From Microbacterium sp. CFH 31415 (GTDB lineage: Bacteria; Actinomycetota; Actinomycetes; Actinomycetales; Microbacteriaceae), in NCBI RefSeq assembly GCF_022538185.1, contig NZ_JAKYXC010000006.1, positions 232,778 through 296,777 on the forward strand: a stretch of 64,000 nucleotides of DNA, given 5' to 3'. The position numbers were made by a program, and so were the translations under genes. A model generated the notes under the pieces. It was not told the origin of the DNA and ran no database searches. It saw only the letters and a list, made by a program, of their open reading frames with translations. Positions within the stretch are counted from its first letter, which is position 1, and each line of letters opens with the position of its first letter. Below are positions 19,793 through 52,042 of the stretch, in pieces.

Positions 19793-19793
19793 C

Positions 19794-20963: not shown

Positions 20964-21745
20964 GCCCGGTCGGACGGACGGCCGGCGATGCGGTCCGCGA
21001 TGAGCTTCGCACCGCCGGACGATGTGAAGCCGCCATCGACGGGCAGCTCGGCGCCGGTCACGTACGAGGCGGCGTCGGACAGCAGGAAGGCGACCGTCCG
21101 GGCGACTTCGTCGGCGTCCGCCGTGCGTTCGAGCGGCGTGAGCTCGAGCTGTGCGGTGCGCATCGAGCCGGGAGCCGACGACGTCATCGGAGTCTCGACG
21201 AACCCGGGATGGACGATGTTCACCCGGATGCCGCGCGGTCCGAGCTCGGTCGCGGCGGCGTGAGTGAGTCCGCGCAGTCCCCACTTGCTCGCGGTGTAGG
21301 CCGCGGGGTAATGGCCCGTCAGCGCAGCGGACGATCCGACGTTGACGATGGACGAGCCTGCGTGCAGGACAGGCAGCACGCTCTGGATGCCGAGCATGGC
21401 GCCCGTGAGGTTGACCGAGAGCACTCGATCCCAGTCCGCGCGCTCGAGATGGCCGAGGCGAGCCCGGTGCGTGATGCCGGCGTTGTTGACCAGACCGTGC
21501 AGCGGCCGGCCGCCGAGCTCGCCGCGCAGCCATTCGGCGTATTCGGCCCAGTCGGCTTCGTCGGCCACGTCGAGCCGGCGGTAGGCCGCCCCCGCCTCGC
21601 GCAGCGAAGCGGGGATCTTCTCGCCGAGGTCCGACGCGAAGACCACCGCACCGGCGTCCGCGAGCAACCGGACCTCGGCAAGACCCTGTCCTGCAGCAGC
21701 GCCGGTGACGACGACGGTTGCACCGTCCAGGCCGGGGAAGGTCAT
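20933..21745 (-). CDS. short-chain dehydrogenase/reductase
   Basis: 270 residues from ATG 21745. Classical SDR: the cofactor motif TGAAAGQGLAE near residue 15, NNAG near residue 90, catalytic Ser in NVGSSAALTG and YTASK as the Tyr-Lys pair, followed by PGFVETPM and ELPVDGGF. It is an NAD(P)-dependent alcohol/ketone oxidoreductase; the substrate is not predictable. Its start overlaps the stop of the LysR gene by 4 bp, so the two are co-transcribed and the regulator may respond to the SDR's substrate. The 3' end overlaps convergent pcaF. Confidence 0.88.
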   Translation of the reverse strand: MTFPGLDGATVVVTGAAAGQGLAEVRLLADAGAVVFASDLGEKIPASLREAGAAYRRLDVADEADWAEYAEWLRGELGGRPLHGLVNNAGITHRARLGHLERADWDRVLSVNLTGAMLGIQSVLPVLHAGSSIVNVGSSAALTGHYPAAYTASKWGLRGLTHAAATELGPRGIRVNIVHPGFVETPMTSSAPGSMRTAQLELTPLERTADADEVARTVAFLLSDAASYVTGAELPVDGGFTSSGGAKLIADRIAGRPSDRAQRSSTTASP

Positions 21746-22695
21746 CGCTGGGTCTGGACTGTGAGTTCGTGGCCGCCGGCGGCGACTTCCTCGGCCGCGC
21801 GCGCGAAGATGCCGCGCATCCAGGTGTGCTCGGGGTCGCGCGCATGGACCGGATGCCACCATAGGGCGTTGACGACGGGTGTCGCGTCGAAGGGCACCTC
21901 GAGCACGCGGATGCCGTCCACCCTGCTCGCCGTCGATGCCAGGCCAGCCTGGATGAGCCCCAGACGGTTGGTCCCGGCGATGAAGTGCGGCAGCGCGAGG
22001 AAGCTCTCGACGACGGCTTCGACGCGTGGCTCGACGCCGAGCTGCTGGAGCTGCCGCGCCGCGGAGGTGAAGGCGGTCCGGGTCTGGAACGTGAAGACCC
22101 AGGGAAGCCGGCCGAGCACCTCCATGGTCAGTGCGTCGCCGATCTCGTCGTTGTCGTCGGAGGCGAGGACGACCCAGCCGTCGCGCCAGAGGTCGGCGTA
22201 GGGCAGCTCAGTGAGGTGGCCGTGCGGGATCACCATGCCGTCCACGGACCGCAGGCGCACGGCGGCGTCCTCGACGATCGAGGGGTTGTGGAGCATGAAC
22301 CGCAGACGCACGCCCGGCGCCTCCTCTGCGGCGAGCCGCGACACAGCAGCTCCGATCGTGGCGAACCCGTAGTCGGAGCCGTAGATGGAGAACTCGCGCG
22401 AGGAGTCGTGCGGCGTCCAGATGGCCTGGCTCTCGAACACCCGCCGCGCGGCATCCAGTGCCGTCGTCGTGTGCTCGGTCAGCCGCAGGGCGAGGGGGGT
22501 GAGTTCGTAGGTGTTGCCCCGCCGGGCGAGGATCGGGTCATTGAAGTGGGTGCGAAGCCGGGCGAGCGATGCGCTGAGGGCCGGCTGGCTGAGATGAAGG
22601 CGCTCCGCAGCCCGCGTCACGCTGCGCTCCGTCAGGAGCGCGTCCAGGGCGACCAGCAGGTTGAGATCGAGACGAGAGAGCAGGGGATCGGACAC
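21742..22695 (-). CDS. LysR-type regulator (NodD/LinR-like)
   Basis: 317 residues from GTG 22695, preceded by GAAGGA about 10 bases upstream; a GTG at 22731 is the alternative. The N-terminal HTH (LDLNLLVALDALLTERSVTRAAERLHLSQPALSASLARLRTHFNDPIL) is of the NodD/LinR type, a branch often tied to aromatic inducers such as flavonoids or chlorinated phenols. The C-terminal effector domain is complete. It is divergent from the first DUF6379-TIM fusion gene across a 188-bp region with a hairpin and a direct repeat, so it may control that gene as well as its own SDR partner. Confidence 0.85.
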   Translation of the reverse strand: MSDPLLSRLDLNLLVALDALLTERSVTRAAERLHLSQPALSASLARLRTHFNDPILARRGNTYELTPLALRLTEHTTTALDAARRVFESQAIWTPHDSSREFSIYGSDYGFATIGAAVSRLAAEEAPGVRLRFMLHNPSIVEDAAVRLRSVDGMVIPHGHLTELPYADLWRDGWVVLASDDNDEIGDALTMEVLGRLPWVFTFQTRTAFTSAARQLQQLGVEPRVEAVVESFLALPHFIAGTNRLGLIQAGLASTASRVDGIRVLEVPFDATPVVNALWWHPVHARDPEHTWMRGIFARAAEEVAAGGHELTVQTQR

Positions 22696-22765
22696 GGCGT
22701 TGTGTTCCTTCGGACTAAGTTCGCTGAGCACAGTGTATCCGTGTGATCTATATGGTGCCGAGGGG

Positions 22766-22883: not shown

Positions 22884-24188
22884 ATGCTTCTCGAACGAGA
22901 CCTGATCCAGTCCGTCGGCTTCCGCAACGTCCGCGAGGGGAGCGAGGTCATCGGCTTCCAGCTGCGCCTGCGCATGCAGTCGTACCGCGGGATGGCGGCA
23001 TCCCTCATCGACGGCGTCTCGGTGCGCGTCGGCGACGTCGTCGACGTCGGACCGGAGGTGCCGCTGTGGACGCTGCAGGGGCGCACATACTCGCTGGCGG
23101 AGCTGTGGGACTCGGACGACGTGCGGTGGCCGCTCGAGGATCCCGCGATCATCACGGTTCCGTTCGCCGGAGGCCTGCCCGAGGGCATCCACGAGGTGAG
23201 CGTCGAACTGCGGCTGCGGATGTCGTACATCCCTCTCGAGCATCAGCCGTCGACCTACCGCCAGACCAAGCGCATCACCTTGACCTCGGATCTCGACGGC
23301 GGCCCGTTCCGCTACGGCGTGAGCCTCTACAGCTTCATGCACGACTTCGGGACGGTGCTCGACCTCGAGACCGCACTCGCCCACGTCGCCGATGTCGGTG
23401 CGACGGGCGTCGAGATCCTCGGCGAGGGCCACGTCGCCGGTTATCCCGAGCCGTCCACCCAGTGGATCGACACGTGGTTCACCCTGCTCGACCGATACGG
23501 GCTGGAGCCGACGAACTACGGCTCGTGGATCGACACCAGACTGCATTCGAGCGGACCGAACGCACGGGATCTCACCGCTCGGGAAGGTGCCGCGCTGCTG
23601 CAGCGCGACCTCAGGCTCGCGAAGCGCCTCGGGTTCTCTTTCGTGCGCCCGAAGATCGGCGTGATCACGAGCGACCTGGTGCCTCACCCGAGCTGGACTG
23701 AAGCCGTCGAGCGCAGCCTCGACCTCGCCGCCGAGCTCGACGTCGTCATCGCTCCCGAGATCCACTCGCCGACCCCGATCAAGCACGAGGTCGTCGACGA
23801 CTACGTCGACCTCATCCAGCGCACCGGCACCCAGCACTTCGGCCTGCTGATCGACACCGGCATCTTCCAGGACCGGCCGATCCCGCTGCGACCGGGCGAG
23901 CTGCCCGGTCAGCGCCCGGCCTTCCTCGACGGCATCGGCGTCGACCCTGCGGACCTGATCGACATCGGTGAGTACGTCGTGTTCGTGCAGGCCAAGTTCC
24001 ACGACATCGACGACGACCTCGTCGACCAGCAGATCCGGTGGGAGCCGGTGCTGCAGGGGCTCAAGGACGCCGGCTACGCCGGCTGGCTGTCCAGCGAGTA
24101 CGAGGGCGACCGTGCCCCATGGCGCTCGATCGAGCAGGTGCGCCGCCAGCACGCGCTGATGCGCCGTGTCGCCTCCCGGCTGCGCTAG
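22884..24188 (+). CDS. fused C-deglycosidase-like protein 1 (DUF6379-like domain + TIM barrel)
   Basis: 434 residues. Residues about 8-135 match the small beta-sandwich subunit of CarC/DgpC-type C-deglycosidases (I believe DUF6379). Residues about 143-430 are a xylose-isomerase-like TIM barrel like CarB/DgpB, beginning YGVSLYSF. Known enzymes of this family are complexes of separate chains that cleave the C-C bond of 3-oxo-C-glycosides; here both are on one chain. Candidate metal ligands are E292 (PEIHSP), D324 (LLIDTG) and E405 (SSEYEG). The usual histidine of the HAKF motif is Q369, with H373 four residues on. First gene of the island, 35 bp before a second fusion. Function is inferred. Confidence 0.75.
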   Translation: MLLERDLIQSVGFRNVREGSEVIGFQLRLRMQSYRGMAASLIDGVSVRVGDVVDVGPEVPLWTLQGRTYSLAELWDSDDVRWPLEDPAIITVPFAGGLPEGIHEVSVELRLRMSYIPLEHQPSTYRQTKRITLTSDLDGGPFRYGVSLYSFMHDFGTVLDLETALAHVADVGATGVEILGEGHVAGYPEPSTQWIDTWFTLLDRYGLEPTNYGSWIDTRLHSSGPNARDLTAREGAALLQRDLRLAKRLGFSFVRPKIGVITSDLVPHPSWTEAVERSLDLAAELDVVIAPEIHSPTPIKHEVVDDYVDLIQRTGTQHFGLLIDTGIFQDRPIPLRPGELPGQRPAFLDGIGVDPADLIDIGEYVVFVQAKFHDIDDDLVDQQIRWEPVLQGLKDAGYAGWLSSEYEGDRAPWRSIEQVRRQHALMRRVASRLR

Positions 24189-24223
24189 CGCCGGCATCCC
24201 ATCTGATCCGACAGGAGACCCGC

Positions 24224-25750
24224 ATGCCCAATGGGCTGATTCACGACGACAGCCTGCGGCCTCACCGCGAAGGACTGGCCCTGAGGCTGACCCTGCCGTG
24301 GTACCGCAGCCTCTGGCTCTCGTCGGTCTCGACGCTCGAGCTCACCGTAGACGGGCAGCGCGTGCCCGCAGTCGATCTCGTGCTCGAGCACGCAGGCAGG
24401 CGGTATTCCCTCGATGAACTGCCCGCGCAGAGCGAGGCCCTGTGGTTTCTGCAGGAGCATCCGCTGCTGATCGCAAGGCGTTCGGCGCCCCTCGCCGTCG
24501 GCGAGCAGCACGACATCGTCTTGCACGGCGAGTTGCGTCTGCCGTACATGCAGATCACGCCCGGGGAGGACGGCGGTCCCGGGCTCTACGTGCCGAACAT
24601 CGTGCACGACGCGAAGCGCCTGACGGTGACGGAGACGGATGCCCCGGCCCCGGCGCTCATGCCGGATGTGGCGCCCCCACCGCCGGCGAGCGAGTCCGAT
24701 CCGTTCCGACTGGGCCTGACGCTCTACTCGGCGAGCGCCGAGTTCCGCGCCGGATGGTTTGATTTCGCCGGGCTGCTCGACCGGGTCGCCGAGCTCGGCA
24801 TCGGGCCGGGCATCGAGATCGTCGCCTCTCAGGTGCTGCCCACCTACCCCGTCGTCTCCGACGACTTCGTGCGGGCGTGGCGCGACGCGTTCGACCGACA
24901 CGGTTTCGTCGCCAGCTCGTTCGGCGCGAACCTCGACATGGGCCGCCGGCGTGACCGCGACATGACGGCGGACGAGGAGTTCGAGTTCTCGGAAGTCATG
25001 CTGGACGGCGCCAAGAAGCTCGGGTTCCCGCTCGTGCGCATCCAGTCCGCCAAGCCCGCACTGCTGCGCCGCCTGCTGCCTGTCGCCGAGCGGCTCGAGC
25101 TGCAGCTGGCCTATGAGATCCACGCTCCGCTGGGGCCGAACGCGGAGCCGATCCTGCGTGTCCGCGAGACGTACGCAGACCTGGAGTCGCCGCTTCTCGG
25201 CTTCGTGGCGGACTTCTCCTCCACGATGCATGCCATGTCGCCCACGCTGCTGCGCGCAGTGCGGCGTGCCGGACTGGACGATGAAGCAGTCGCCACCCTC
25301 CAGCGGGTCTGGGCCACGGACGCTCCGATCCGCGAGCGCCAGCAGGAGTTCATCGGGTACCTGCAGGGTCGTGACTTCGATCCGGGCCGGCTCGGGGCGT
25401 TCGCTCACCTCGCCTTCAACATGCACGGGCACGTCGACCCGCACGAGTGGGCCGACATCATGCCGCAGATCCTGCACGTGCACGCCAAGTTCTACGACAT
25501 CGACGAGTCCGGTCAGGAGCCCGCCATCGACTACCCCGAGCTCGTGCGCGTGTTCGTCGAGAGGGGCTATCGCGGATTCTGGTCGAGCGAATGGGAGGGG
25601 CACGCCTTCGCTGAGCTCGGGGAGGTCGACCCCCTGCTGCTCGTGCGCCGCCAGCACGATCTCATCCGCCGCTCGATGCGCAACCTCCAGCCCCCGACAC
25701 CGGCGCCGATCACGGCCACATCGACCCTGCCGACCCCGCCGCGCGTCTGA
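24224..25750 (+). CDS. fused C-deglycosidase-like protein 2 (DUF6379-like domain + TIM barrel)
   Basis: 508 residues from ATG 24224, with AGGAGACCCGC upstream. Residues 10-135 (LPWYRSLWLSSV to GGPGLYVPN) resemble the small protein at 43173-43589. A Pro/Ala-rich linker spans about 139-158. Residues 161-480 resemble the TIM barrel at 41339-42388, including GANLDMGRRRDRDMTADEE, YEIHAP, ADFSSTMHAMSPTLL, HVHAKFYDID and SSEWEGHAF. All four expected metal ligands are kept: E298, D330, H420, E456. It is therefore a single-chain version of the split pair found 17 kb away. Probable reaction: C-C bond cleavage of a 3-oxo-C-glycoside; the barrel could also isomerise keto-sugars. Confidence 0.8.
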   Translation: MPNGLIHDDSLRPHREGLALRLTLPWYRSLWLSSVSTLELTVDGQRVPAVDLVLEHAGRRYSLDELPAQSEALWFLQEHPLLIARRSAPLAVGEQHDIVLHGELRLPYMQITPGEDGGPGLYVPNIVHDAKRLTVTETDAPAPALMPDVAPPPPASESDPFRLGLTLYSASAEFRAGWFDFAGLLDRVAELGIGPGIEIVASQVLPTYPVVSDDFVRAWRDAFDRHGFVASSFGANLDMGRRRDRDMTADEEFEFSEVMLDGAKKLGFPLVRIQSAKPALLRRLLPVAERLELQLAYEIHAPLGPNAEPILRVRETYADLESPLLGFVADFSSTMHAMSPTLLRAVRRAGLDDEAVATLQRVWATDAPIRERQQEFIGYLQGRDFDPGRLGAFAHLAFNMHGHVDPHEWADIMPQILHVHAKFYDIDESGQEPAIDYPELVRVFVERGYRGFWSSEWEGHAFAELGEVDPLLLVRRQHDLIRRSMRNLQPPTPAPITATSTLPTPPRV

Positions 25751-30637: not shown

Positions 30638-30674
30638 CGGGTTCCTCCTCGGCGATCATCGGGGTGAAACGGCA

Positions 30675-30708: not shown

Positions 30709-30727
30709 GCCGTGCGCTGTCAGCCGA

Positions 30728-32029: not shown

Positions 32030-32095
32030 TTCGACCCTTTCGTGACTTCGTTGTCGCCAGCGTCGGGTTGCTGGCTCGGCCGCTGGCCGCGCAAT

Positions 32096-32131: not shown

Positions 32132-32178
32132 ATCGTTTATGTGGTGCAATAGCCCCAGTGATTCGCGTATTCGGCCGA

Positions 32179-38239: not shown

Positions 38240-38243
<4 letters not shown>

Positions 38244-39766
38244 GCCGGTACCCCGAGTCCGTCGACGTCGCGATCGTCGGGAGCGGACCCGCGGGGGCCA
38301 CGTACGCCCGCATCCTGAGCGAGCGCGCTCCCGGCGCCACGGTCGCCCTCTTCGAAGTGGGCCCCACGATCACGGATCCGCCCGGTGCCCACGTGAAGAA
38401 CATCGCCGACCCGTCCGAGCGGGCCCGCGCGCAGACCCGGTCGGAGGGTCCGCACGCCAGGGCGAGCGAGGACCGGACGGGCGGGATCGTCAAGACCACG
38501 CAGCGCCGGGCGCGACCGGGGACCTTTCTGCTCGAGAGCGGCTATCAGGTCGAGGGCGAAGACGGTCTGCCCGTCGCTGCCATGTCGAGCAACGTCGGCG
38601 GGATGGCCGCGCACTGGACCGGCGCCTGCCCTCGACCCAATGACAGCGAGCGGATCGCGGTCCTCGACGCGGACGCGACCTTCGACGAGCTGCTCGCCGA
38701 GGGGGAGCGACTGCTCGGGGTGACGACGGACGCGTTCGACAGCTCGCCGTATGCCGGACTCGTGCGCGAGCGGCTCTCCGCAGCCGAGGATGCAGGACGC
38801 ACCGCCACGACACGCGTACAGAGGATGCCGCTGGCGGTGCACCGCAGAGGCGACGGGAATCTCGTGTGGTCGGGCTCGGACGTCGTGTTCGGCGACGTCA
38901 CGCGTGGGAACGCGCAGTTCACTCTGTACGACGAGTCCCTCGTCACACGTGTGCTGGTCGAAGACGGCCGCGCGGCGGGAGTCGCCGTCGCGGACAGGCG
39001 GACGGGCGAGACCTCCGAGATCCGCGCGCGGTTCGTGGTCGTGGCCGCCGACGCCCTGCGCACCCCGCAGCTTCTCTGGGCTTCCGGCGTCCGTCCCGAG
39101 GCCCTCGGCCGCTACCTCAACGACCAGGCGCAGATCGTGTTCGCCGTGCGCATCCGCGACCTCGAACCGGCGGAGGGCGAGGACAAAGCGGGTGCCACAG
39201 GCCTGAGCGAGTACAGCGGCGTCACGTGGGTGCCCTTCACCGACGATATGCCGTTCCACGGTCAGGTGATGCAGCTGGATGCCTCGCCCGTGAAGCTCGC
39301 GGACGACGACCCCGCCGCACCCGGCTCCATCGTCGGGCTCGGGCTGTTCTGCGCGAAGGACCTGCAGGCCTCGGATCGCGTGGAGTTCTCCGACGAGGAG
39401 GTGGACGGATACGGGATGCCGGCGATGACCGTGCACTACCGTCTCACCCCGCTCGACGAGGCGGTGATCGCGCGCGGCAAGGAGGAGATCGTCCGCCTCG
39501 GGAAGGCCGTAGGGGAACCGCTCGACGACCGGCCGTTCATGATGCCGCTGGGAGCCTCGCTCCACTATCAGGGCACGACGCGACTCGGTGCGGTCGACGA
39601 CGGCACGAGCGTCTGCTCGGTCGAGAGTGAGGTCTGGGGCGTCGCAGGGCTGTTCGTCGCCGGCAACGGCGTCATTCCCACCGCGACGGCGTGCAACCCC
39701 ACGCTCACCGGCGTCGCGCTCGCCGTGAACGGCGCTCGGACCATCGCCGCTCGTCTGGCCGAGTGA
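38240..39766 (+). CDS. CarA-like FAD-dependent glycoside 3-oxidase (GMC oxidoreductase) 1
   Basis: 508 residues. FAD-binding VAIVGSGPAGATYARIL at residues 10-26; substrate/flavin region SNVGGMAAHWTGACPRP. C-terminal GMC domain with H442 (LHYQGTTRLG) and N486 (NPTLTG) as the likely catalytic pair. The family includes pyranose oxidases and the bacterial C-glycoside 3-oxidase CarA of Microbacterium, which oxidises the sugar C3-OH and makes the C-C bond labile. No signal peptide. It lies directly upstream of the carC/carB-like genes but is separated from them by a promoter. A related protein is encoded at 61859-63451. Confidence 0.85.
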
Positions 39767-39834: not shown

Positions 39835-40239
39835 GTGATCCCCGATCGAATCATCGAGCAGGACACGCTCACGATCGACGGCGACCGCGCCTCGGTCGAG
39901 GTGCGCCTGCCCTGGTACCGGGCTCTGCCCGCCTCGTGCATCGCCGGCGCCACCCTCACCATCGACGGCGTGACGGCTCCCGCCGACTCGCTGCGCTGGG
40001 AGATGAACGGCCGCACCTTCACGTTCGCCGAGCTCAGGCGCAACATCGAGGAGTGGTGGTTCCCCACCGACTCCGCCGTCCTCTCGGGCGGCCTCGCGCT
40101 GGATGAGACCGCGGAGCACAAGGTCGAGGTCGGACTCATCCTGTACATCCCATACATCGTCATCGGCGCCGACGAGGTGCTCCACATCGAGGAGCACGAC
40201 GCCAAGACCATGACCGCACGAAAGGCGGTGGCAGCATGA
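39835..40239 (+). CDS. C-deglycosidase small subunit, CarC-like (1)
   Basis: 134 residues with a GTG start (AGGAGACCCC upstream). It is an all-beta protein with the family block VEVRLPWYRALPASCIAGATLTIDG, then EEWWFPTDSAVL and VGLILYIPYIVIG. It corresponds to CarC/DgpC, the small subunit (I believe DUF6379) that joins the TIM-barrel subunit in C-glycoside deglycosidases. The gene for its partner starts inside its stop codon (ATGA at 40236), so the two are probably made in equal amounts. First gene after the operator promoter. Confidence 0.82.
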   Translation: MIPDRIIEQDTLTIDGDRASVEVRLPWYRALPASCIAGATLTIDGVTAPADSLRWEMNGRTFTFAELRRNIEEWWFPTDSAVLSGGLALDETAEHKVEVGLILYIPYIVIGADEVLHIEEHDAKTMTARKAVAA

Positions 40240-41342
40240 GTGCGCTGGGCACCCCCATCCAGGGCGTCACGCTCTACAGCTTCACGCGTGCCTTCCACGG
40301 ACGCGAGTACGACCTCGAAGGCCTGATCCGCAAGGTCGCGGCCGACGGCTACGGCCCCGGACTCGAGATCATCGGCTTCTCGAGCTTCCGCGGCTTCCCC
40401 GCGATCGACGACCGGTTCGCCGGCCGGTTCCGCGACCTCGTCGCCGAGACCGGGCTGGTGACGACCTCGCTCGCCGTGAACGCTGACATCGGCATCCACC
40501 GCGACCGGCTCCTGACCCAGGATGAGCTCCTGGAGTACATGCGCCTCCAGATCCGGGCCGCAGCCAAGCTCGGATTCCCGATCGCCCGCGTGCAGATCTC
40601 GATCACGCCCGACTCCATGGAGGCGCTCGCGCCGATCGCCGAGGAGTACGGCGTGACGCTCGCCCTCGAGGTGCACGCCGACCAGTACGCGTCGCACCCG
40701 CGCATCCTCGCGCTCCGCGACCGCTACGAGAAGGTCGGTTCGCCGTTCCTCGGCTTCACGATGGACTGGGGCGCGACCGTCTCCGGCTTCGCTCCCTCCC
40801 TCATCGAGGCGTACCGCCGCCGCGGCGCGTCGGAGGACCTTCTCGCCAAGGTCGTCGCGCTGTGGGACGAGTTCTATGAGCAGGGTCCGCCGGCCGACCA
40901 GGCCGAGCACGGCCAGCGGTTCGGACGCTTCATCGGCCTCGCCGCCCAGAACGGCCGTCCCGACCTGGGCATCGACTTCGGCATCAACGGCACCGGGCTG
41001 TTCGGACCTGCCCGCGTGGACGACTGGCTCGAGATCTTCCCGTGGATCAAGCACGTCCACGGCAAGTTCTTCGGCATCGACGAGACCGGCGAAGAGCCGT
41101 CCGTCCCGGTGCGCGACCTCGTCCGTCTCCTCGTCGAGAACGGCTACTCCGGAGCGATCTCCAGCGAGTACGAGGGATGGCACTGGAACTACTGGCAGTC
41201 GCCATTCGACATCATCGCCGGCGAGCAGGCCGTGCAGCGCTCTGCTGCAGAGGCTGCCGGATCACACATGACCACGGATGCGGCCGCCGCACGTGCGCAG
41301 CTCGCGCAGTGGCTGCCCACCACGACGGGAGCAAGCGCATGA
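40236..41342 (+). CDS. C-deglycosidase TIM-barrel subunit, CarB-like (1)
   Basis: 368 residues. Xylose-isomerase-like barrel starting GVTLYSFTRAF. Expected divalent-metal ligands are E145 (LALEVHAD), D177 (FTMDWGA), H275 (KHVHGKFFGID) and E311 (SSEYEG). It pairs with the preceding CarC-like protein. In characterised CarB/CarC and DgpB/DgpC the complex cleaves the C-C bond between a 3-oxo-sugar and the aglycone by beta-elimination-like chemistry. It overlaps both neighbours by 4 bp. A keto-sugar isomerase function is the main alternative. Confidence 0.82.
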   Translation: MSALGTPIQGVTLYSFTRAFHGREYDLEGLIRKVAADGYGPGLEIIGFSSFRGFPAIDDRFAGRFRDLVAETGLVTTSLAVNADIGIHRDRLLTQDELLEYMRLQIRAAAKLGFPIARVQISITPDSMEALAPIAEEYGVTLALEVHADQYASHPRILALRDRYEKVGSPFLGFTMDWGATVSGFAPSLIEAYRRRGASEDLLAKVVALWDEFYEQGPPADQAEHGQRFGRFIGLAAQNGRPDLGIDFGINGTGLFGPARVDDWLEIFPWIKHVHGKFFGIDETGEEPSVPVRDLVRLLVENGYSGAISSEYEGWHWNYWQSPFDIIAGEQAVQRSAAEAAGSHMTTDAAAARAQLAQWLPTTTGASA

Positions 41343-42388
41343 CCTCTGATGGAATCGCCGGAACCGGCATCAAGCTCGGCACGACCCTGTACTCCATGAC
41401 GAGCGAGTTCGCGGCAGGGCTCTACACGCCCGAGACGCTCATCGCCGCCGTGGCTGAGCACGGCATCGGGCCGGGCGTCGAGTTCAACATCGCCCAGCTG
41501 CTGCGGACCTACCCCGATGTCGACCAGGACTTCGTCAGGCTCTGGTTCGACTCGCTCGAGAAGTACGGCCTCGAGGCGAGCGCGGTCGGGACGAATCTCG
41601 ACATGGGTCGCCGCAAGGACCGCGACATGACGCCCGATGAGGAGCACGACTTCCTCGCGCGCCAGCTCGAGACCGCCCACAGGCTCGGGTTCAAGAAGGT
41701 CGTCATCCGCTCGCACGGCAAGGAGCTGCTGCGCGGCCTTCTCCCGCTCGCCGAGAAGTACGACCAGTACCTCGGCTACGAGATCCACGCGCCGTCAGGA
41801 CCGAACAACCCGCAGGTCCTGCAGATGCGTGAGATGTACGACGAGCTGCAGTCCGAGCGACTGGGTTTCACCGCCGACTTCTCGTCGACGATGCACAGCC
41901 TGTCCCCGACGCTGCTCGCGCAGCTGGGGAAGATGGGCATGGACGAGAAGCACTTCACGATCATGGATGAGATCTGGCACGAGCCGACTCCCATGCACGT
42001 GCGCAACCAGAAGTTCGAGGACTACCTCGTGAGCGAGGGCGTCGACCCGCTGACGTTCGGCCCGTTCACGCGCCTCGCCTTCAACATGCACGGTCTCGTA
42101 CCGCCCGAGGAGTGGCTCGACATCATGCCGCAGATCTTCCACGTGCACGCGAAGTTCTACGACATCGGTGCCGACGGTGAAGAGCCGGCGATGGACATCC
42201 CGCGCATCGTCAGGCAGTTCGTCGTGGGTGGCTACCAGGGGTACCTCTCCAGCGAGTGGGAGGGACACGCCTTCCAGGACCTCGGCGAGGCCGATCCGAT
42301 CGACCTCGTGAAGAAGCAGCACGCGCTGATGCGCAAAGCCATCGAAGACACCGTCGCCGAGCAGTCGAAGGAGACCGCGAATGTCTGA
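41339..42388 (+). CDS. C-deglycosidase TIM-barrel subunit, CarB-like (2)
   Basis: 349 residues from ATG 41339, overlapping the previous stop. Barrel starting IKLGTTLYSMTSEF. Ligand candidates E148 (YEIHAP), D180 (ADFSSTMHSLSP), H270 (HVHAKFYDI) and E306 (SSEWEGHAF). Very similar to the C-terminal part of the fusion at 24224-25750 (shared NLDMGRR and RDRDMT segments). Its likely small-subunit partner is at 43173, separated by a SnoaL-like gene. It probably has another aglycone or glycoside preference than CarB-like 1, with which it shares only the general fold and ligand set. Confidence 0.82.
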   Translation: MTSDGIAGTGIKLGTTLYSMTSEFAAGLYTPETLIAAVAEHGIGPGVEFNIAQLLRTYPDVDQDFVRLWFDSLEKYGLEASAVGTNLDMGRRKDRDMTPDEEHDFLARQLETAHRLGFKKVVIRSHGKELLRGLLPLAEKYDQYLGYEIHAPSGPNNPQVLQMREMYDELQSERLGFTADFSSTMHSLSPTLLAQLGKMGMDEKHFTIMDEIWHEPTPMHVRNQKFEDYLVSEGVDPLTFGPFTRLAFNMHGLVPPEEWLDIMPQIFHVHAKFYDIGADGEEPAMDIPRIVRQFVVGGYQGYLSSEWEGHAFQDLGEADPIDLVKKQHALMRKAIEDTVAEQSKETANV

Positions 42389-43163
42389 CACCGCCACCGA
42401 GGTCTCGGTCACCGAGCTCGCTGCCGAGCTCGCCGCCCTCCGCCACGAAGTCGTCGCCGCGCGCGCTCTCGCGCAGCGGGCCGAGGACCGCGGCCAGGTC
42501 GAGAACCTCTTCAACCGCTACATGTACCTGCACAACGCGTTCGAGGACGAGCAGATCATTCCGCTGTGGGTCAGGGAAGGCACGGAGGGCATCCGCGCCC
42601 GCTACACGAACGCCGGGCAGTACACGACCTGGAAGAGCGTCACCGACTACCACCGTGGCCGCCCGCACCCCGAAGGCAAGCTCATCCTCCACGCGACGAC
42701 AACGCCTGTCATCGAGGTCGCCGCCGACGGCAGGACCGCCAAGGGCGTGTGGATGATGGCCGGCACCGAGTCCGGACTCACCGACCCGAAGGTCGCCGAA
42801 GCGTTCCCCGACATGTACTCGCCCGAGGAGGTGCTCGGCAAGAAGGTCTGGGCGCACTGGGTGTGGTGCAAGTACGCCATCGACTTCCTCAAGCAGGACG
42901 GCGAGTGGAAGTTCTGGAAGTTCCGCTGCTACGAGCTCGCCCGCGCGCCGTTCGAGGAGAACTGGGTCAGCTTCGGCCTGAAGAACCAGGGCGCGTTCGA
43001 TCTCGACCTCATGTACTTCGGCGACGACGGGAAGCCCGTCTTCATGCCGCCGGCCGACGAGCCGGTCCCCTCGACGAACCACCCCTACAGCCCCGAGACC
43101 GTGCAGAAGCTCGAGCCGGTCCCGCCGGTGGCGCACGAGTCCTTCACCGACACCTACGCCTGA
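42381..43163 (+). CDS. SnoaL/NTF2-like protein in the deglycosidase operon
   Basis: 260 residues, overlapping the end of the CarB-like 2 gene by 8 bp. An N-terminal helix (ELAALRHEVVAARALAQRAEDRGQVENLFNRYMYLHNAFEDEQII) precedes an NTF2-type cone (KVWAHWVWCKYAIDFLKQDGEWKFWKFRCYELARAPFEENW). Longer than usual SnoaL proteins because of a C-terminal extension rich in Pro. No function is established. Its place between the two subunits of one deglycosidase set suggests a partner or a later step on the aglycone or sugar. A second, shorter SnoaL-like protein is at 4821. Confidence 0.7.
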   Translation: MSDTATEVSVTELAAELAALRHEVVAARALAQRAEDRGQVENLFNRYMYLHNAFEDEQIIPLWVREGTEGIRARYTNAGQYTTWKSVTDYHRGRPHPEGKLILHATTTPVIEVAADGRTAKGVWMMAGTESGLTDPKVAEAFPDMYSPEEVLGKKVWAHWVWCKYAIDFLKQDGEWKFWKFRCYELARAPFEENWVSFGLKNQGAFDLDLMYFGDDGKPVFMPPADEPVPSTNHPYSPETVQKLEPVPPVAHESFTDTYA

Positions 43164-43172
43164 GGATCAGCC

Positions 43173-43589
43173 ATGGCCACCCACAACTCTCTCTTCTCCG
43201 AGAAGGACATCCGCCGCACCGACAGCGGCATCGCCGTCGCGGTCCAGCTGCCCTGGTACCGGAGCCTGTGGCTCTCGGCGGTCGACGATGTCGCGGCATC
43301 CGTCAACGGCGTCGAGATCGCGAAGGACTCGCTGCGCTTCGAGCTGCAGGGCACGAGCTACCGCATCGAGGAGCTGCCCGAGCAGTCCGAGACACTGTGG
43401 TTCGTCGCCGACAAGCCAGAGGTCGTCATCGATCTGGGTCGCGCACCCGAGCCCGGTGAGAAGCTGACCATCGAGGTCGTCCTCACGATGCGTCTGCTCT
43501 ACATGCAGATCATGCCCGGTGTCGACGGCGGCCCGGGCCGATACGTCACCAACCGTGTCCCGGTCGAACGCGAGGTCGTCCTCGCATGA
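43173..43589 (+). CDS. C-deglycosidase small subunit, CarC-like (2)
   Basis: 138 residues. It contains VAVQLPWYRSLWLSAVDDVAASVNG and LLYMQIMPGVDGGPGRYVTN, very close to the N-terminal domain of the fusion at 24224-25750 (LPWYRSLWLSSV, LPYMQITPGEDGGPGLYVPN). It should pair with CarB-like 2 encoded two genes upstream. The stop overlaps the Gfo/Idh start (ATGA at 43586), which ties deglycosylation to an oxidoreductase. Confidence 0.8.
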   Translation: MATHNSLFSEKDIRRTDSGIAVAVQLPWYRSLWLSAVDDVAASVNGVEIAKDSLRFELQGTSYRIEELPEQSETLWFVADKPEVVIDLGRAPEPGEKLTIEVVLTMRLLYMQIMPGVDGGPGRYVTNRVPVEREVVLA

Positions 43590-44767
43590 CCCTCCGCGTG
43601 GCCATGATCGGCTACGGGTTCATGGGAGCCGCGCACTCCGTCGGATGGCGCCAGGCACCGCGCGTGTTCACCCTCCCCGAGGACGTCGAGATGTCGGTCG
43701 TCGTCGGTCGCAACGCAGACGCGGTGGCGGATGCCGCCACCCGGTGGGGCTGGCAGGAGTCGGCCACCGACTGGCGCGAGGTCATCGCGCGCGACGACAT
43801 CGACATCGTCGACATCGTCACGCCGGGCGACTCTCACGCCGAGATCGCGATCGCCGCGCTCGAGGCCGGTAAGCACGTGCTGTGTGAGAAGCCTCTCGCG
43901 AACACGGTGGCGGAGGCGGAGGCGATGGCGGATGCCGCGTCCCGCGCCGCTGCGCGAGGCATCCGCTCGATGGTCGGCTTCACGTACCGACGCGTTCCCG
44001 CAGTGACGTTCCTGCGCGACCTCATCGCGCAGGGCGCGGTCGGGAAGATCGCGCAGGTGCGCGCGGCCTACCGACAGGACTGGCTCGTCGACCGCGGGAT
44101 GCCGCTCGCGTGGCGCCTGCAGAAGGAGCACGCCGGCTCGGGGGCGCTGGGTGACATCGGCGCGCACATCATCGACATGACGCAGTTCGTGACCGGACTC
44201 GACGTCGTCGCCGTGTCGGGGACGGTCGAGACGCTCGTGAAGGAGCGGCCCCTGCTGGGGGGCGGCTCGGGACTCTCCGGCACCGCGGCCGAGGGCTTCG
44301 GGCAGGTGACCGTAGACGACATCGCGCTCTTCTCCGGAAGGCTGTCCACCGGGGCTCTCGTGTCGTTCGAGGCATCCCGCTTCGCGACCGGACGAAAGAA
44401 CGACCTCTCGATCGAGGTCTCGGGCGACAGGGGCGCGCTGCGGTTCGACCTCGAGGATCTCAACACGCTCTGGTTCTACGACCGCACCGCGCCAGAGGTG
44501 ACCCAGGGGTTCACACGCATCCTGGTCACCGAACCGCAGCATCCCTACGTCGCGGCGTGGTGGCCTGCCGGTCACACGCTCGGCTACGAGCACGGCTTCA
44601 GTCACCAGGTCGTGGACTTCGTGGCCGCGATCGCGGCGGGCACGGACCCGCGGCCCTCGTTCGCCGAGGGCCTGTCGGTGCAGCGCGTGCTCGAAGCGGT
44701 GGAGCGCTCGAGCGAGAACGAGTCCGCCTGGCTCCGCGTCGCCGCGGACGTCCCGGCATCCGCCTGA
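43586..44767 (+). CDS. Gfo/Idh/MocA-family oxidoreductase 1
   Basis: 393 residues. Rossmann domain with [15 protein letters not shown] at the start and the CEKPLANT motif near residue 105 (lysine of the active site). The C-terminal alpha/beta domain includes [14 protein letters not shown]. Family members are NAD(P)-dependent sugar dehydrogenases or reductases; DgpA of gut puerarin degraders is one that oxidises the glycoside C3. Here it could oxidise the glycoside in parallel with CarA or reduce the released 3-oxo-sugar. It is translationally coupled to the CarC-like gene. Confidence 0.88.
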
Positions 44768-44790
44768 GAATCGATCCGAGGGAGAACCCG

Positions 44791-45795
44791 ATGGCGCGTC
44801 CGATCACCCTGTTCACCGGCCAGTGGGCCGATCTGCCATTCGAAGAGGTTGCGCGCCTGGCGGGCGAGTGGGGCTATGACGGCCTCGAGATCGCCTGCTG
44901 GGGCGACCACCTCGATGTGTCCCGGTGGGACGACGCCGCGTACGTCCAGTCGCGGCTGGACATCCTCGAGCGCAACGGGCTCAAGGTCTGGGCGATCTCG
45001 AACCACCTCACCGGCCAGGCAGTGTGCGACGACCCGATCGATGAGCGGCACCGCGACATCCTGTCGGACCGCGTGTGGGGCGACGGCGACCCCGAGGGTG
45101 TGCGTCAGCGCGCCGCGGAGGACATGAAGAACACCGCCCGGTTCGCCGCGAAGCTCGGCGTGACCACGGTGAACGGGTTCACCGGTTCCTCGATCTGGAA
45201 GGCCGTCGCGATGTTCCCGCCCGCGTCGGAGGAATTCGTCGCCCGCGGCTACCAGGACTTCGCCGACAGGTGGAACCCGATCCTCGACGTGTTCGAAGAG
45301 GTCGGCGTGCGCTTCGCGCTCGAGGTGCACCCGTCCGAGATCGCGTACGACTACTGGACCGCGAAGGACACCCTCGACGCGATCGGGCAGCGCAAGAGCT
45401 TCGGGTTCAACTTCGACCCGTCGCACTTCGTCTGGCAGCAGCTGGACTATGTCGCGTTCGTGCTGGACTTCGCGCCGCACATCTTCCACGTGCACGTGAA
45501 GGAGTCGATCACCAACCTCGACGGCCGCAACGGCGTCATGAGCTCGCACCGCCCCTGGGCCGACCAGCGGCGCGGGTGGACCTTCGTCTCCACGGGCCAC
45601 GGCGCGGTGCGATGGGAGCCGCTGTTCCGGGCGCTCAACGCGATCGGCTACACCGGACCGACCTCGGTCGAATGGGAGGACGCCGGCATGGACCGCCTCG
45701 TCGGCGCACCCGAGGCGCTCGCGATGGTCCGCGCGCTCAACGCGATCACCCCACCCGCCGCCGCTTTCGACGCCGCCTTCTCCACAAAGCCCTGA
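44791..45795 (+). CDS. sugar phosphate isomerase/epimerase-like TIM barrel
   Basis: 334 residues from ATG 44791 (GAGGGAGAA upstream). AP-endonuclease-2/xylose-isomerase fold: [38 protein letters not shown], then FALEVHPSE (Glu), NFDPSHF (Asp), HVHVKE (His) and [11 protein letters not shown] (Glu). It belongs to the group that accompanies Gfo/Idh enzymes in keto-sugar and inositol catabolism. It likely interconverts keto-sugars, for example the 3-oxo-sugar and its 2-oxo isomer. Its last base overlaps the next Gfo/Idh gene (TGATG). Confidence 0.82.
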
Positions 45796-48308: not shown

Positions 48309-49181
48309 TCAGCCCTCGTGGTCGTAGTACGGCCAGGGGAGGAAGCGGCGATCCCCGCGCCGGTCCGGCCCAGTCAGCGTGACGGAGCCGGTCGCGGCCC
48401 ACTCGACGCCGCGCGGGAACATGCGGATGAACTCGATGCGCCGGAACGTGTCGATGTCGTGCCCGATCGTGATCGTGAACGAGCGGCCGGCGCCGTACTC
48501 GTTGATCCACGCGATCGGCTGATCGGTGTTCATGCCGTTGAGTTCGGAGATGCCCGCCTCGGGGATCACGACCGGATAGTGCGACATGGGCCACACGGGG
48601 GCGTTCTCGTACGCGTCGAGGTCGTCGAAGGTCGTCAGGAGCACCTGAGCGCCCTCGTAGAGGTCGACGCCCGTGAGGATGTCGTCGCCCGTGACGGTCC
48701 AGGTCGGGCTGATGCCCTCGGTGATCGGGTGCCGCGGGTCCGCCGTCCGGAGGAGCGCCTCGCCCCACGGGCGGGGGCGCAGGCCGGTCTCGTAGGCGCT
48801 CAGCTTGGCGCCGCGCATGACGTTGTACTCCTCGGGGTAGCCCCACGAATCCTCCTGCGCGGCCGACCCATGGAACCACACGATGCCCTTGCCGTCGTCG
48901 TGGACGAAGCGCAGGATGACGGCATCCGTCTCGGCGCCGAAGCCGACGGCCCTGTCGAAGTAGCCGTCGCGCCCCTCGAAGACGACGATCAGCACGTCGT
49001 ACTTGTCGATGATCTCGGTCCCCAGCCCTCGGGGATCCTCGACGACCCGAACACGGAAGCGCGCCGTATCCTCGAGCAGCGTGGTGATCCAGTGGTTGTG
49101 CTGGCGGAAGCTGCGGTGCTCGTTGTCGTGCTCGCGGGTCATGTGACCCGAGAGGATCAGCACATTCAGGACGTCGGTCAT
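48309..49181 (-). CDS. ThuA-domain protein
   Basis: 290 residues from ATG 49181, overlapping the preceding fusion gene's stop by 4 bp. It has the class I glutamine amidotransferase-like ThuA fold: LNVLILSGHMTREHDNEHRSFRQHNHWITTLLED, YDVLIVVFEGRDGYFD, GIVWFHGSAAQEDS and WINEYGAGRSFTITIGHDIDTF. ThuA-type proteins occur in trehalose and 3-keto-sugar utilisation loci and are proposed sugar-modifying enzymes. Linked to the third fusion and the ROK regulator, it probably handles the released oxo-sugar. No signal peptide. Confidence 0.83.
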   Translation of the reverse strand: MTDVLNVLILSGHMTREHDNEHRSFRQHNHWITTLLEDTARFRVRVVEDPRGLGTEIIDKYDVLIVVFEGRDGYFDRAVGFGAETDAVILRFVHDDGKGIVWFHGSAAQEDSWGYPEEYNVMRGAKLSAYETGLRPRPWGEALLRTADPRHPITEGISPTWTVTGDDILTGVDLYEGAQVLLTTFDDLDAYENAPVWPMSHYPVVIPEAGISELNGMNTDQPIAWINEYGAGRSFTITIGHDIDTFRRIEFIRMFPRGVEWAATGSVTLTGPDRRGDRRFLPWPYYDHEG

Positions 49182-50638
49182 CGGTGATCCGTTCGGTGGG
49201 CGGTCGTCATCGGTGCGCGGTCGCCGAGTGCCGCGCGGGCGAGCGCGAGATGCGCGCGGGTCATCGCGACCGGGTCGTCGTCGAGCCACTCGTGCCCGCC
49301 CCACTCGCTGGTGAGGGTGCCGGTGAATCCGGCGCTGCGGAGCGCGCCGCCGATGTCGGCGATCGGACCCGACACCCGGGCGTCGGTGTCGTCCAGATCC
49401 CAGAACTTCAGGTGGACGCCCTCGGTCAGCGGCAGGAGGGGGGCGACGTCGTCGATCGTGGACCGTCCGAAGCGCACGAGGAGGTTCATGAAGAGCGTGT
49501 GCGCCACGCCCGGGACCTCGCCGCCCCGGAGGGCGCCGAGCACGGCGGCGTGGGTGTCAGGTGCGCGCCAGTCGCTCGCCAGGCGGTCGACGAGAGCACC
49601 GCACACTCCTGCGTCGCGAAGAGCGGCGAGGTAGCTCGTCGGCAGTGAGGGCATCAGCATGCTGATGTCGATCAGCACTCGGATGCGCGGGTCGTCGAGC
49701 TCCTCGAGCAGTTCGAGGTTGGCGGCGTTCGCTGCCACGTCGAGCGTCTGCTGACCCTGGATCTCTTCGTAGAGCACGATGTCCAGTTCCGCGAGGACCG
49801 GCTGGAGCAGACGCAGCAGCTCGGGGCCCGCCTGTCCGAACGGCACGCGCACGCCCCGAGCCCCGAGCTGTGCAGCCGCGCGCAGCTGGGGTGTGAGGAA
49901 GGCCAGCCGCTCCGCTTCGGTGCGGCGTCGGCCCGAGGACCCCCAATCGTCGATGCTCCCACCGAGGATCGTCACCGCTCCGCCGGCAAGCTCCAGTCGT
50001 TCGCGGAAGGCGAGCACGTCGAGCGAGGTCGGTTCCGGAAACGACCGCCACAGCTGACCGGGCTCGACTTCGATCGTCGGGGCGATCCCCGCTTCGACGA
50101 TTCCCGCGACGATATCGAGGGCGTCGCGCTCGGCACGGATGATCTCGGGCGTCCAGTTGAACGCGCTCGCCGACAGCGCCCAGCTCCCGTCCGGCGCGGG
50201 CGCAGCCTCCGCCGGACGCGGATCGGGCGTCGTGCTCGCGGCGCCCGGCGACGCGGGCCGGGTACCGGGTGCAGGGTTCTCGAGCGCAGCGTCGGCACGG
50301 AAGGACAGCGTCAGCGGGCCCTCGGAACCCGCCTGGAGGTAGGGAACCACGAGCGCGAACGACACTGCGACGTCGTGGGCGCCCGGGCGCAGCATCCGTC
50401 GCCCCTCGAGCATGAGCCGGTCCTGGACGAACCACCATCCCGGTTCAGTCGAGAGGGCGCCGGGGGAGACGCGGCGCCGTCCGAGCCGTACCTCCACCTC
50501 GACGGGTTCGCCGTCGATCGTAACGGTGAGGTCGATGACGCCCGCGAGCGGGAGCGAGCGGATCCACGGGAGGCTCACCGCGAGGGTGAACCCTCCATCC
50601 GTCGCGTCGAGCGCATCGTCGAGCAGGACTGGGAGCAT
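49178..50638 (-). CDS. fused C-deglycosidase-like protein 3 (DUF6379-like domain + TIM barrel)
   Basis: 486 residues. Residues 15-118 resemble the small CarC-like subunit (VSLPWIRSLPLAG, WWFVQDRLMLEGRRMLRPGAHDVAVSFALVVPYLQ). A Pro/Ala-rich linker of roughly 30 residues (119-152) connects to a diverged xylose-isomerase-like barrel that begins SASAFNWTPEI rather than LTLYS. Likely ligands are E292 (YEEIQG), D324 (LIDISM), H409 (VHLKFWDLD) and E445 (SEWGGHE), so the metal site is intact. It is the most divergent of the three fusions. It belongs to a minus-strand group with ROK and ThuA. Deglycosidase activity is inferred. Confidence 0.72.
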   Translation of the reverse strand: MLPVLLDDALDATDGGFTLAVSLPWIRSLPLAGVIDLTVTIDGEPVEVEVRLGRRRVSPGALSTEPGWWFVQDRLMLEGRRMLRPGAHDVAVSFALVVPYLQAGSEGPLTLSFRADAALENPAPGTRPASPGAASTTPDPRPAEAAPAPDGSWALSASAFNWTPEIIRAERDALDIVAGIVEAGIAPTIEVEPGQLWRSFPEPTSLDVLAFRERLELAGGAVTILGGSIDDWGSSGRRRTEAERLAFLTPQLRAAAQLGARGVRVPFGQAGPELLRLLQPVLAELDIVLYEEIQGQQTLDVAANAANLELLEELDDPRIRVLIDISMLMPSLPTSYLAALRDAGVCGALVDRLASDWRAPDTHAAVLGALRGGEVPGVAHTLFMNLLVRFGRSTIDDVAPLLPLTEGVHLKFWDLDDTDARVSGPIADIGGALRSAGFTGTLTSEWGGHEWLDDDPVAMTRAHLALARAALGDRAPMTTAHRTDHR

Positions 50639-50708: not shown

Positions 50709-51977
50709 TCAGGCGGCGTCGGTGAAGATGCCCTCGATCGTCGGTCGGCCCGCGGCGAACCACCGGGGGAACGTCACGTCGAAGAGCTGCTCGCGCACCA
50801 TCTCCGCGCCACCTCGCAGCGGCTCCCGTGCGTCGTTGACGGACTGGGCGATCGTGAGGTCTCGCGTGGCGAGCGGCAGCGAGAGTTCGTACACCCGCTG
50901 GCGCACTTCGGCGAGGAAGATCTCGCCCGCAGACGGCACAGCGCCTCCGACGACGATCGTTGCCGGGTTGAACATGTTGACGAGCGCGGCGATCGACTCC
51001 CCGACCACGCGCGCCGACCGCTGCACCAGCGCGATGGCCACCGCGTCTCCGTCCTCGGCGGCGAGTGAGATCGCCTCGGGGCGCAGCGGCTCGCCGTCGT
51101 CGGACCACCGCGCGAGGTACCCCGTCGCGCCGTCGGCGATCGCCTTCTCGGCATCGCGGACGAGGGCCCAGCCCCCCGCGACGGCCTCCAGGCATCCGGT
51201 CTTCCCGCACCGGCAGGGCACATCGGCGTCCCGCACGCGCACGTGCCCGATGTCGCCCGCCGCGCCGTTCGCGCCGCGGTGGAGCCGGCCCTGCGAGAGC
51301 AGCCCGGCGCCGATGCCGGTGCCGACCTTGCAGTAGATCAGGTCGGCGTGCTCGTCCCGGCGCCGCGCCCGCTCGTTGAGGGCGAGCAGGTTGACGTCGT
51401 TGTCGACCCACACCGGCGCACCGTAGCGCTGCTCGAACTTCCGGCGCACGTCGAACCCGTTCCATCCCGGCATGATCGGTGGGGCCACAGGTCGGCCGGA
51501 GCCGAAGTCGACGGGGCCGGGAACTCCGACAGCCACTCCCCAGACCGGGACGTCCGGTGTGCGGGCGAGCAGCTGGTCGATCATCTCCATTGCGGTGTCG
51601 AGCGTCTCGGCGGGTCCTCGCGAGATGTCCCAGGGGCGGTGCTCGGCGTCGAGCACGTCACCGTCGAGCAGGGTGACGCCGACGTGGATGTGCAGAGCGC
51701 CGAGCGCGCAGATGACGATGCGGCCGCGATCACTGCGGAAGCGCAGCGTGCGCGGGGCTCTGCCGCCGGACGACGGACCGAACTCCCCGTCTGCGAGGAA
51801 GCCCATCTCGATCGCCTGGTCGACGCGCTGCGTGACGACTCCGCGGCCGAGCCCCGTGACGCGCCCGATCTCGGGCCGCGTGGTCGCCTCATGTGTGCGA
51901 ACGAGGTTGACGACGCGGAGAAGGCTCGTGACCTCGTCTGTCTGGGCGCCGAAGCGCAGCGTGGACTGTTTGGCCAT
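50709..51977 (-). CDS. ROK-family transcriptional regulator
   Basis: 422 residues from ATG 51977. The N-terminal winged helix (VVNLVRTHEATTRPEIGRVTGLGRGVVTQRVDQAIEMGFL) precedes a ROK sugar-kinase-like domain with GVAVGVPGPVD, VDNDVNLLALNE and GAAGDIGHV. The zinc motif CRCGKTGCLEA is intact. ROK repressors such as NagC and XylR bind sugars or sugar phosphates. Upstream of the fusion and ThuA genes and divergent from a Gfo/Idh gene, it probably senses a sugar product of the pathway. Its promoter region contains a 17-bp inverted repeat. Confidence 0.9.
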   Translation of the reverse strand: MAKQSTLRFGAQTDEVTSLLRVVNLVRTHEATTRPEIGRVTGLGRGVVTQRVDQAIEMGFLADGEFGPSSGGRAPRTLRFRSDRGRIVICALGALHIHVGVTLLDGDVLDAEHRPWDISRGPAETLDTAMEMIDQLLARTPDVPVWGVAVGVPGPVDFGSGRPVAPPIMPGWNGFDVRRKFEQRYGAPVWVDNDVNLLALNERARRRDEHADLIYCKVGTGIGAGLLSQGRLHRGANGAAGDIGHVRVRDADVPCRCGKTGCLEAVAGGWALVRDAEKAIADGATGYLARWSDDGEPLRPEAISLAAEDGDAVAIALVQRSARVVGESIAALVNMFNPATIVVGGAVPSAGEIFLAEVRQRVYELSLPLATRDLTIAQSVNDAREPLRGGAEMVREQLFDVTFPRWFAAGRPTIEGIFTDAA

Positions 51978-52042
51978 AGCTGATCTTGACACAACTTCTG
52001 TCGATCAGGGACTCTTTCCAGCGTCCTATAGTCACTTCGAAG

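What the first reader, a model, noticed from the sequence alone, without database searches (positions are those of the whole stretch)
22884..25750. Single-chain C-deglycosidase-like enzymes: two tandem DUF6379-TIM-barrel fusions
Characterised C-glycoside deglycosidases (CarB/CarC of actinobacteria, DgpB/DgpC of gut bacteria) are complexes of separate TIM-barrel and small beta subunits. Here two consecutive genes each encode the small domain followed by the barrel on one chain; the second has a Pro/Ala-rich linker and a full metal site (E298, D330, H420, E456). Its two halves each resemble a separate protein encoded at 41339 and 43173. This is a natural fusion that supports subunit pairing and may be an undescribed enzyme form.
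Basis: partly seen in the sequence, partly recalled or inferred. Interest (0 to 1): 0.88.

Follow-up and report, generated by a model that had tools for sequence, protein, structure and literature searches.

The report
Two single-chain C-glycoside-cleaving enzymes
Two neighbouring bacterial genes each encode, on one chain, both halves of an enzyme known mostly as a two-chain complex, and the proteins are predicted to free plant aromatics from sugars held by carbon-carbon bonds; the single-chain form itself is already known from a solved close relative of the first protein.

Summary
ORF A (22884-24188) and ORF B (24224-25750) each join a C-glycoside deglycosidase (CGD) beta domain (Pfam CGDB, called DUF6379 in many records) to a TIM barrel. 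The claim of an undescribed form is not: A is 77% identical in each domain to PDB 8QRZ/8UN2, a single-chain "Microbacterium testaceum C-glucosyl deglycosidase" released in April 2025, and B has 882 homologues at E up to 1e-10. (2) B keeps every metal and catalytic residue tested; A has Gln at one metal ligand, as do 8QRZ and unfused kin. (3) Fused B lies just behind A in 25 of 28 same-genus genomes with full-length A. (4) A confident model of B matches both AgCGD2 subunits, but not the domain arrangement of 8UN2. (5) A third fusion, C (49178-50638, minus), keeps the metal ligands but has lost base His, its partner Glu and beta Tyr, nearly without exception in 120 homologues; it sits in 31 of 32 genomes with an A match and 0 of 117 others. 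Likely function of A and B: beta-elimination of 3-keto C-glycosides, perhaps C6 (A) and C8 (B).

The parts
22884..23291 (+). fusion A, beta (CGDB/DUF6379) domain, residues 1-136; Tyr equivalent to Tyr39beta of PuCGE kept
23292..23306 (+). fusion A, short linker, about residues 137-141
   Evidence: inferred from the alignments
23307..24188 (+). fusion A, TIM barrel without lid, EuCGD/8QRZ type; base His and its Glu kept, metal ligand His269 is Gln (AgCGD2 numbering); stop included
24224..24625 (+). fusion B, beta (CGDB) domain, residues 1-134; Tyr27 = Tyr39beta of PuCGE
24626..24703 (+). fusion B, Pro/Ala-rich linker, about residues 135-160
24704..25750 (+). fusion B, TIM barrel with lid, AgCGD2 type; E298, H300, D330, H420, K422, E456, E458 all kept; stop included
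39835..40239 (+). unfused CGD beta subunit 1, overlaps the next gene by 4 bases
40236..41342 (+). unfused CGD alpha subunit 1; the metal and base positions tested are kept
41339..42388 (+). unfused CGD alpha subunit 2, AgCGD2 type, 53% identical to the barrel of B
42381..43163 (+). SnoaL-like protein between alpha 2 and beta 2
43173..43589 (+). unfused CGD beta subunit 2, 42% identical to the beta domain of B
38240..39766 (+). GMC oxidase close to PDB 7dve (906 bits), a likely C-glycoside 3-oxidase for the step before CGD
44785..45795 (+). TIM-barrel protein matching 8ro4, 2-hydroxy-3-keto-glucal hydratase (121 bits), the likely next step; its best match is 2zds (500 bits, named putative DNA-binding protein)
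43586..44767 (+). Gfo/Idh/MocA oxidoreductase, possible 3-keto-sugar reductase
49178..50638 (-). third fusion C: divergent CGDB-like domain plus barrel; metal ligands kept, base His to Gln, Glu307 to Gly, beta Tyr to Ile
50709..51992 (-). ROK-family gene beside C, found beside C in 19 of 20 loci (own included)
21742..22731 (-). LysR-type regulator divergent from fusion A

Best explanation
Two neighbouring genes at 22884-25750 each encode, on one chain, the small beta domain and the TIM barrel of a C-glycoside deglycosidase, and both proteins are predicted to break the carbon-carbon bond between a C3-oxidised sugar and an aromatic aglycone. Shown by sequence: the domain content, the catalytic residues, the separate kinship of the two fusions and their conserved tandem. 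Inferred mechanism, following the published CGD scheme (PMC8563793, PMC10628242): an oxidase, likely the GMC protein at 38240, makes the 3-keto glycoside; the barrel's metal holds the 3-keto group; His (AgCGD2 His149), helped by Glu307, takes the C2 proton; the beta-domain Tyr activates the aglycone; beta-elimination frees the aglycone and 2-hydroxy-3-keto-glucal. The protein at 44785 would hydrate that product and a Gfo/Idh/MocA protein would reduce it; the pca genes at 14443-20963 would use the ring once it is cut down to protocatechuate. The fusion would keep the two halves of the active site at 1:1. Also inferred, and less sure: A (EuCGD-like, no lid) takes C6-glycosides and B (AgCGD2-like, Met249 kept) takes C8-glycosides, so that the tandem covers both positions.
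Against: No activity data here. A lacks the metal ligand His269 (Gln instead), and the Ala mutant at that position is dramatically reduced in PuCGD and MiCGD; 8QRZ has the same Gln and is named CGD by its depositors, but I could not read its paper. PuCGE also cleaves 3-keto O-glucosides, so C- versus O- preference is open. The C6/C8 split rests on kinship and one residue. B's PDB kin and model do not share the domain arrangement of 8UN2.
Confidence: 0.78

Rival explanations
1. A and B are mainly 3-keto O-glycoside eliminases that use the same metal site on O-glucosides.
For: PuCGE cleaves 3-keto-phlorizin as well as C-glucosides. The window also holds O-glycoside enzymes: GH3 and GH106 and GH43.
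Against: In PuCGE the Tyr39beta to Phe change costs about 12,000-fold on 3-keto C-glucosides but 2.4-fold on the O-glucoside; that Tyr is kept in A, in B and in 120 of 120 listed B homologues.
Confidence: 0.12
2. They are ordinary sugar-phosphate isomerases or epimerases, as many database names say, with an accessory beta-sandwich.
For: Names such as sugar phosphate isomerase/epimerase; the barrel fold also occurs in epimerases.
Against: CGD chains outrank the epimerases listed in structure, the strong sequence matches and 8 are CGD chains, and the CGD residues Glu307 and beta Tyr are kept.
Confidence: 0.04
3. The fusions are assembly errors or chance read-through of overlapping genes.
For: Some unfused relatives have 4-base GTGA or ATGA overlaps, where one frame change would join the genes; a few loci are frame-broken (L128, L079; G900).
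Against: 64 of 80 named genome loci carry two fused frames; 8QRZ is one chain.
Confidence: 0.01

Closest known systems
Microbacterium testaceum C-glucosyl deglycosidase, PDB 8QRZ/8UN2
   Same: Single chain, beta domain then barrel; A matches residues 1-433; the same Gln at the metal His position (alignment).
   Different: B is only about 23% identical by Foldseek and its model does not superpose on the whole chain (16.5 A over 387 residues; 18.1 A over 509 columns), so its domain arrangement differs.
AgCGD2 (AgCarB2-C2) of Arthrobacter globiformis, PDB 7DNM/7DNN
   Same: B's two domains, all five metal ligands, base His, Glu307, Tyr17, Asn248 and Met249.
   Different: AgCGD2 is an alpha-beta heterodimer of two chains; B is one chain with a linker of about 26 residues. 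Arg123 of AgCGD2 is Gln in B.
EuCGD (DfgA-DfgB), PDB 7BVS
   Same: Best-scoring two-chain relative of A (201 bits); no lid domain.
   Different: Two chains in an alpha4beta4 complex, with the metal His present (alignment).
PuCGD/PuCGE (DgpB-DgpC), PDB 7BVR/7EXZ
   Same: Mechanistic model for the base His and the beta Tyr.
   Different: Gut enzyme of two chains, in another clade than A and B.

Membership tests
C-glycoside deglycosidase (A and B) | beta domain of the CGDB family | tested here: met
   A 2e-31, B 9.2e-13, both over the cut-off
C-glycoside deglycosidase (A and B) | alpha barrel homologous to CGD alpha chains | tested here: met
   A: 8qrz_A and 7bvs_A; B: 7dnm_A 429 bits; B is 1 bit under the Pfam cut-off of the general barrel family
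C-glycoside deglycosidase (B) | metal ligands Glu147, Asp179, His269, Lys271, Glu305 | tested here: met
   all five in B
C-glycoside deglycosidase (A) | metal ligands Glu147, Asp179, His269, Lys271, Glu305 | tested here: inconclusive
   four kept, His269 is Gln as in 8QRZ and five unfused relatives
C-glycoside deglycosidase (A and B) | base His149, Glu307 and beta Tyr39 | tested here: met
C-glycoside deglycosidase (A and B) | active site formed between alpha and beta parts | tested here: inconclusive
   B model confident across both domains; coordinates were not at hand to compare with the 7DNM heterodimer; A was not modelled
C-glycoside deglycosidase (A and B) | cleavage of 3-keto C-glycosides | not testable with these tools
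   needs an assay
single-chain CGD of the 8QRZ type (A) | end-to-end match to 8QRZ | tested here: met
   778 bits, residues 1-433
single-chain CGD of the 8QRZ type (B) | closest kinship to 8QRZ and the same domain arrangement | tested here: not met
   AU test rejects A and B as one clade, p 3e-7; 16.5-18 A whole-chain rmsd
C-glycoside deglycosidase (C, 49178-50638) | base His149, Glu307 and beta Tyr39 | tested here: not met
   Gln, Gly and Ile in C; the same in 119 of 120, 120 of 120 and 116 of 116 homologues; so C is not filed as a CGD

The most novel reading that the evidence does not exclude
The third fusion, C, founds a new enzyme class built on the CGD scaffold. It keeps all five metal ligands but has replaced the base His by Gln, Glu307 by Gly and the beta Tyr by Ile, and carries a fixed signature of its own (a second Glu before the metal Glu, FNWT, Arg at 175, Trp four places after the metal His). 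It is part of the same pathway, in 31 of 32 sampled same-genus genomes with an A match and none of the other 117, and would act on a keto-sugar or an unusual glycoside by chemistry other than C-C beta-elimination. A weaker companion idea: the A-type and B-type single chains place their beta domains differently, A with a short linker serving a neighbouring chain, B serving its own barrel.
Probability: 0.4. Interest if true: 0.66.

Novelty: new variant of a known kind. Interest (0 to 1): 0.45.

Why it matters
CGDs build the active site between two subunits, and those of PuCGD and EuCGD cannot be exchanged. Natural single chains of EuCGD-like and AgCGD2-like kinds give ready one-gene catalysts for C-glycoside cleavage or, as shown for PuCGE in PMC13273386, for C-glycosylation in reverse, and let the role of subunit pairing be tested directly. 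The conserved C family asks what a CGD scaffold does once its acid-base groups are gone.

Tried and rejected
Undescribed form: rejected, because of 8QRZ/8UN2. Its paper was not found: searches for 8QRZ, 8UN2/8QVC/8UMC/8QVD/DUF6379 and Microbacterium testaceum with C-glucosyl gave none, so what its depositors report is unknown to me. That the fused form is missing from print is therefore not claimed. Searches with fused, single polypeptide or single-chain terms listed no paper on such a CGD; one search matched 4,089 papers and listed 10. The held library lacks most subscription journals.

Loss of the metal His as a mark of fusion or decay: rejected, since unfused L032, L033, L034, L045 and L046 have the same Gln.

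One origin of all fusions: the tree with all fused barrels together is rejected (p 6.5e-8), but the counts cannot tell fusion from fission. The rejection of "A fused only" (same call) used a group named after the tree was seen.

The single-sequence AF2 model of B (pLDDT 46) was not used. A first barrel tree had lost most A-type rows through a length filter and was rebuilt. Rows over 75% identical with the same state were thinned before (39 of 200 kept). In one search I relabelled L035 from unfused to fused by hand (one 452-aa frame) and left L129 (contig edge) and L079 (frame broken) out of the counts; with the labels as first scripted the count was 9 changes.

C as a decaying pseudogene: disfavoured, because the changed positions are near-fixed across 120 homologues and 29 positions (polar, aromatic, Met or Cys) are at least 97% one residue in C and another in B. 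C as the hydratase of the pathway: not excluded, but 44785 already matches the known hydratase, which C's search did not list.

NCBIfam gave no match to A, B or C at E up to 1e-5. PF19906 matched 5 of 396 genomes drawn from the phylum, 16 of 396 from the order and 7 of 38 relatives, own genome included in each.

Full report
What is there. The two ORFs are real and lie where stated. A (434 aa) and B (508 aa from the ATG at 24224) each carry a CGDB domain followed by an AP_endonuc_2 barrel. CGDB is Pfam's name for the family that many records call DUF6379.

Is the form new? No. Against the sequences of all solved structures A finds 8qrz_A with 778 bits over residues 1-433. The entry title is [quoted passage not shown], with a cryo-EM twin 8UN2, both released 2025-04-23. 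The two domains of A are each 77% identical to it. I found no held paper on it. B's relatives are also common: 882 homologues with E up to 1e-10 among the 7995 candidates scored, of which the best 120 were listed, 79-89% identical and 489-498 aa long, several already named [quoted passage not shown].

Kinship. A careful tree of 39 barrels puts A with 8QRZ and EuCGD, B with AgCGD2 and alpha 2, and C far from both. The best tree with A and B held together is rejected (p 3e-7). With corrected labels (14 fused, 23 unfused, 2 not counted) the state changes at least 6 times, 5 of them forced by well-supported branches. A tree of 33 beta domains also keeps A, B and C apart and needs 6 changes. It agrees with the barrels in the main, with one difference: beta 2 falls inside the fused B-type domains (95/72), while alpha 2 lies outside the fused B-type barrels. 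EuCGD and AgCGD2 beta chains were not in that tree. The trees do not tell fusion from fission. Two unfused relatives, of A and of C, have 4-base overlaps between beta and alpha (L046 ATGA; L029 GTGA), and genes 39835 and 40236 of pair 1 in this window overlap by 4 bases, so a small frame change could join them. In L109 the pair is separate without such an overlap.

Distribution. The five CGDB copies found in the own genome all lie in this window (the copy in C is below the family cut-off). A scan of genome contigs found 310 relatives of A, of which the best 80 were kept; 64 of these 80 loci have two fused frames, in two of them (L096, L106) with the B-like frame upstream. They include Microbacterium, Agromyces, Arthrobacter, Pseudarthrobacter and Leifsonia, and also Arthrobacter globiformis NBRC 12137 and Microbacterium trichothecenolyticum DSM 8608. 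PMC8563793 (passages, outline and four sections seen) took AgCGD1, AgCGD2 and MtCGD from those two species and found them to be heterodimers; that DSM 8608 equals its strain NBRC 15077 is recalled. In 149 genomes drawn from the window's own genus, 32 match A at E up to 1e-60, 28 of them full length at 75% identity or more. 25 of the 28 have fused B 11-90 bases downstream; 17 of these matches hold no stop and the other 8, which run over a stop, were checked as single frames (G009, G012, G018; G826, G828, G854, G874, G880). In G900 the two parts of B are in different frames, and G914 and G020 show no full-length B.

Catalysis. Positions follow PMC8563793 (sections seen) and PMC10628242 (passages seen). 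B, alpha 1 and alpha 2 keep all five metal ligands, His149 and Glu307. A keeps all but His269, which is Gln. Unfused relatives share that Gln, so it is not a sign of fusion. The beta Tyr, decisive for C- but not O-glycosides in PuCGE, is kept in A and B and visible in both unfused beta subunits of the window. B keeps Met249, which is Ala or Gly in the C6-cleaving MiCGD, AgCGD1 and MtCGD. A is EuCGD-like and lacks the lid; EuCGD is modelled to accept the C6 compound homoorientin. The C6/C8 division is a prediction.

Pathway. 38240 is close to 7dve (906 bits), which PMC11673046 names as MtCarA (passage). 61859 is a second pyranose-oxidase-like protein, nearest 8qve (368 bits). 44785 matches the 2-hydroxy-3-keto-glucal hydratase 8ro4 with 121 bits, behind 2zds with 500 bits. 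43586 and 45801 are Gfo/Idh/MocA oxidoreductases; 43586 is nearer to 4h3v (531 bits) than to DgpA (88 bits). 14443-20963 holds protocatechuate dioxygenase beta and PcaC (over their cut-offs), PcaB- and PcaD-like genes (under them), CoA-transferase and thiolase genes. This is a plausible route from C-glycosyl flavonoids to central metabolism, by inference.

The third fusion. C (49178-50638, minus strand) is a weak CGDB match (0.0085) and barrel match (7.3e-05), both under the cut-offs, with a barrel nearest AgCGD2 (68 bits). In its 120 listed homologues (of 663) all five metal ligands are 120 of 120, while His149 is Gln in 119 of 120, Glu307 is Gly in 120 of 120 and the beta Tyr is Ile in 116 of 116 with a letter there. 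The 20 genome loci fetched (own included, of 31 genomes with C) agree at all the barrel positions. C is fused in 9 of these 20 loci and split in 11. A ROK gene lies beside it in 19 of 20; in the twentieth, L160, C starts at the contig edge. C-type proteins occur in 31 of the 32 genomes with an A match and in none of the other 117 at E up to 1e-20; the hit in G870 is its B protein (Fisher p 3e-31, which ignores the relatedness of the genomes). C fails the CGD membership test but goes with the pathway; its reaction is unknown, and a changed chemistry on a keto-sugar is my best guess.

Verdict. A correct observation with a partly outdated claim of novelty: the single-chain CGD exists as a solved structure. 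The remaining interest lies in the separate B fusion, its different domain arrangement, and the conserved, catalytically altered C family.

Noticed in passing
49178-50638 (-): Third beta-barrel fusion with metal ligands kept and base His, Glu307 and beta Tyr replaced, near-fixed across its family; split in 11 of 20 loci.
   Followed up: yes
50709-51992 (-): ROK-family gene beside C in 19 of 20 loci, a possible regulator tied to C.
   Followed up: partly
41339-43589: In unfused pair 2 a SnoaL-like gene (42381-43163) lies between alpha and beta.
   Followed up: partly
53980-63451: Second cluster: extradiol dioxygenase-like, FAA hydrolases, cyclase, FAD monooxygenase, amidohydrolase, MFS transporter and a second pyranose-oxidase-like GMC protein at 61859.
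   Followed up: partly
5334-7931 (-) and 18366-20963 (+): Two sets of 3-oxoadipyl-CoA-thiolase-like and CoA-transferase genes in one window.
   Followed up: partly
28472-35400 (-): GH3 and a 1073-aa GH106 alpha-rhamnosidase near the CGD genes, perhaps trimming O-linked sugars first.
   Followed up: partly
L047 (genome G261): Two tandem fused proteins of yet another CGD line, near PuCGD in the tree, so a further fusion group.
   Followed up: partly
48309-49304 (-): ThuA-domain gene overlapping the end of C; found near C in only some loci and in varying positions.
   Followed up: partly
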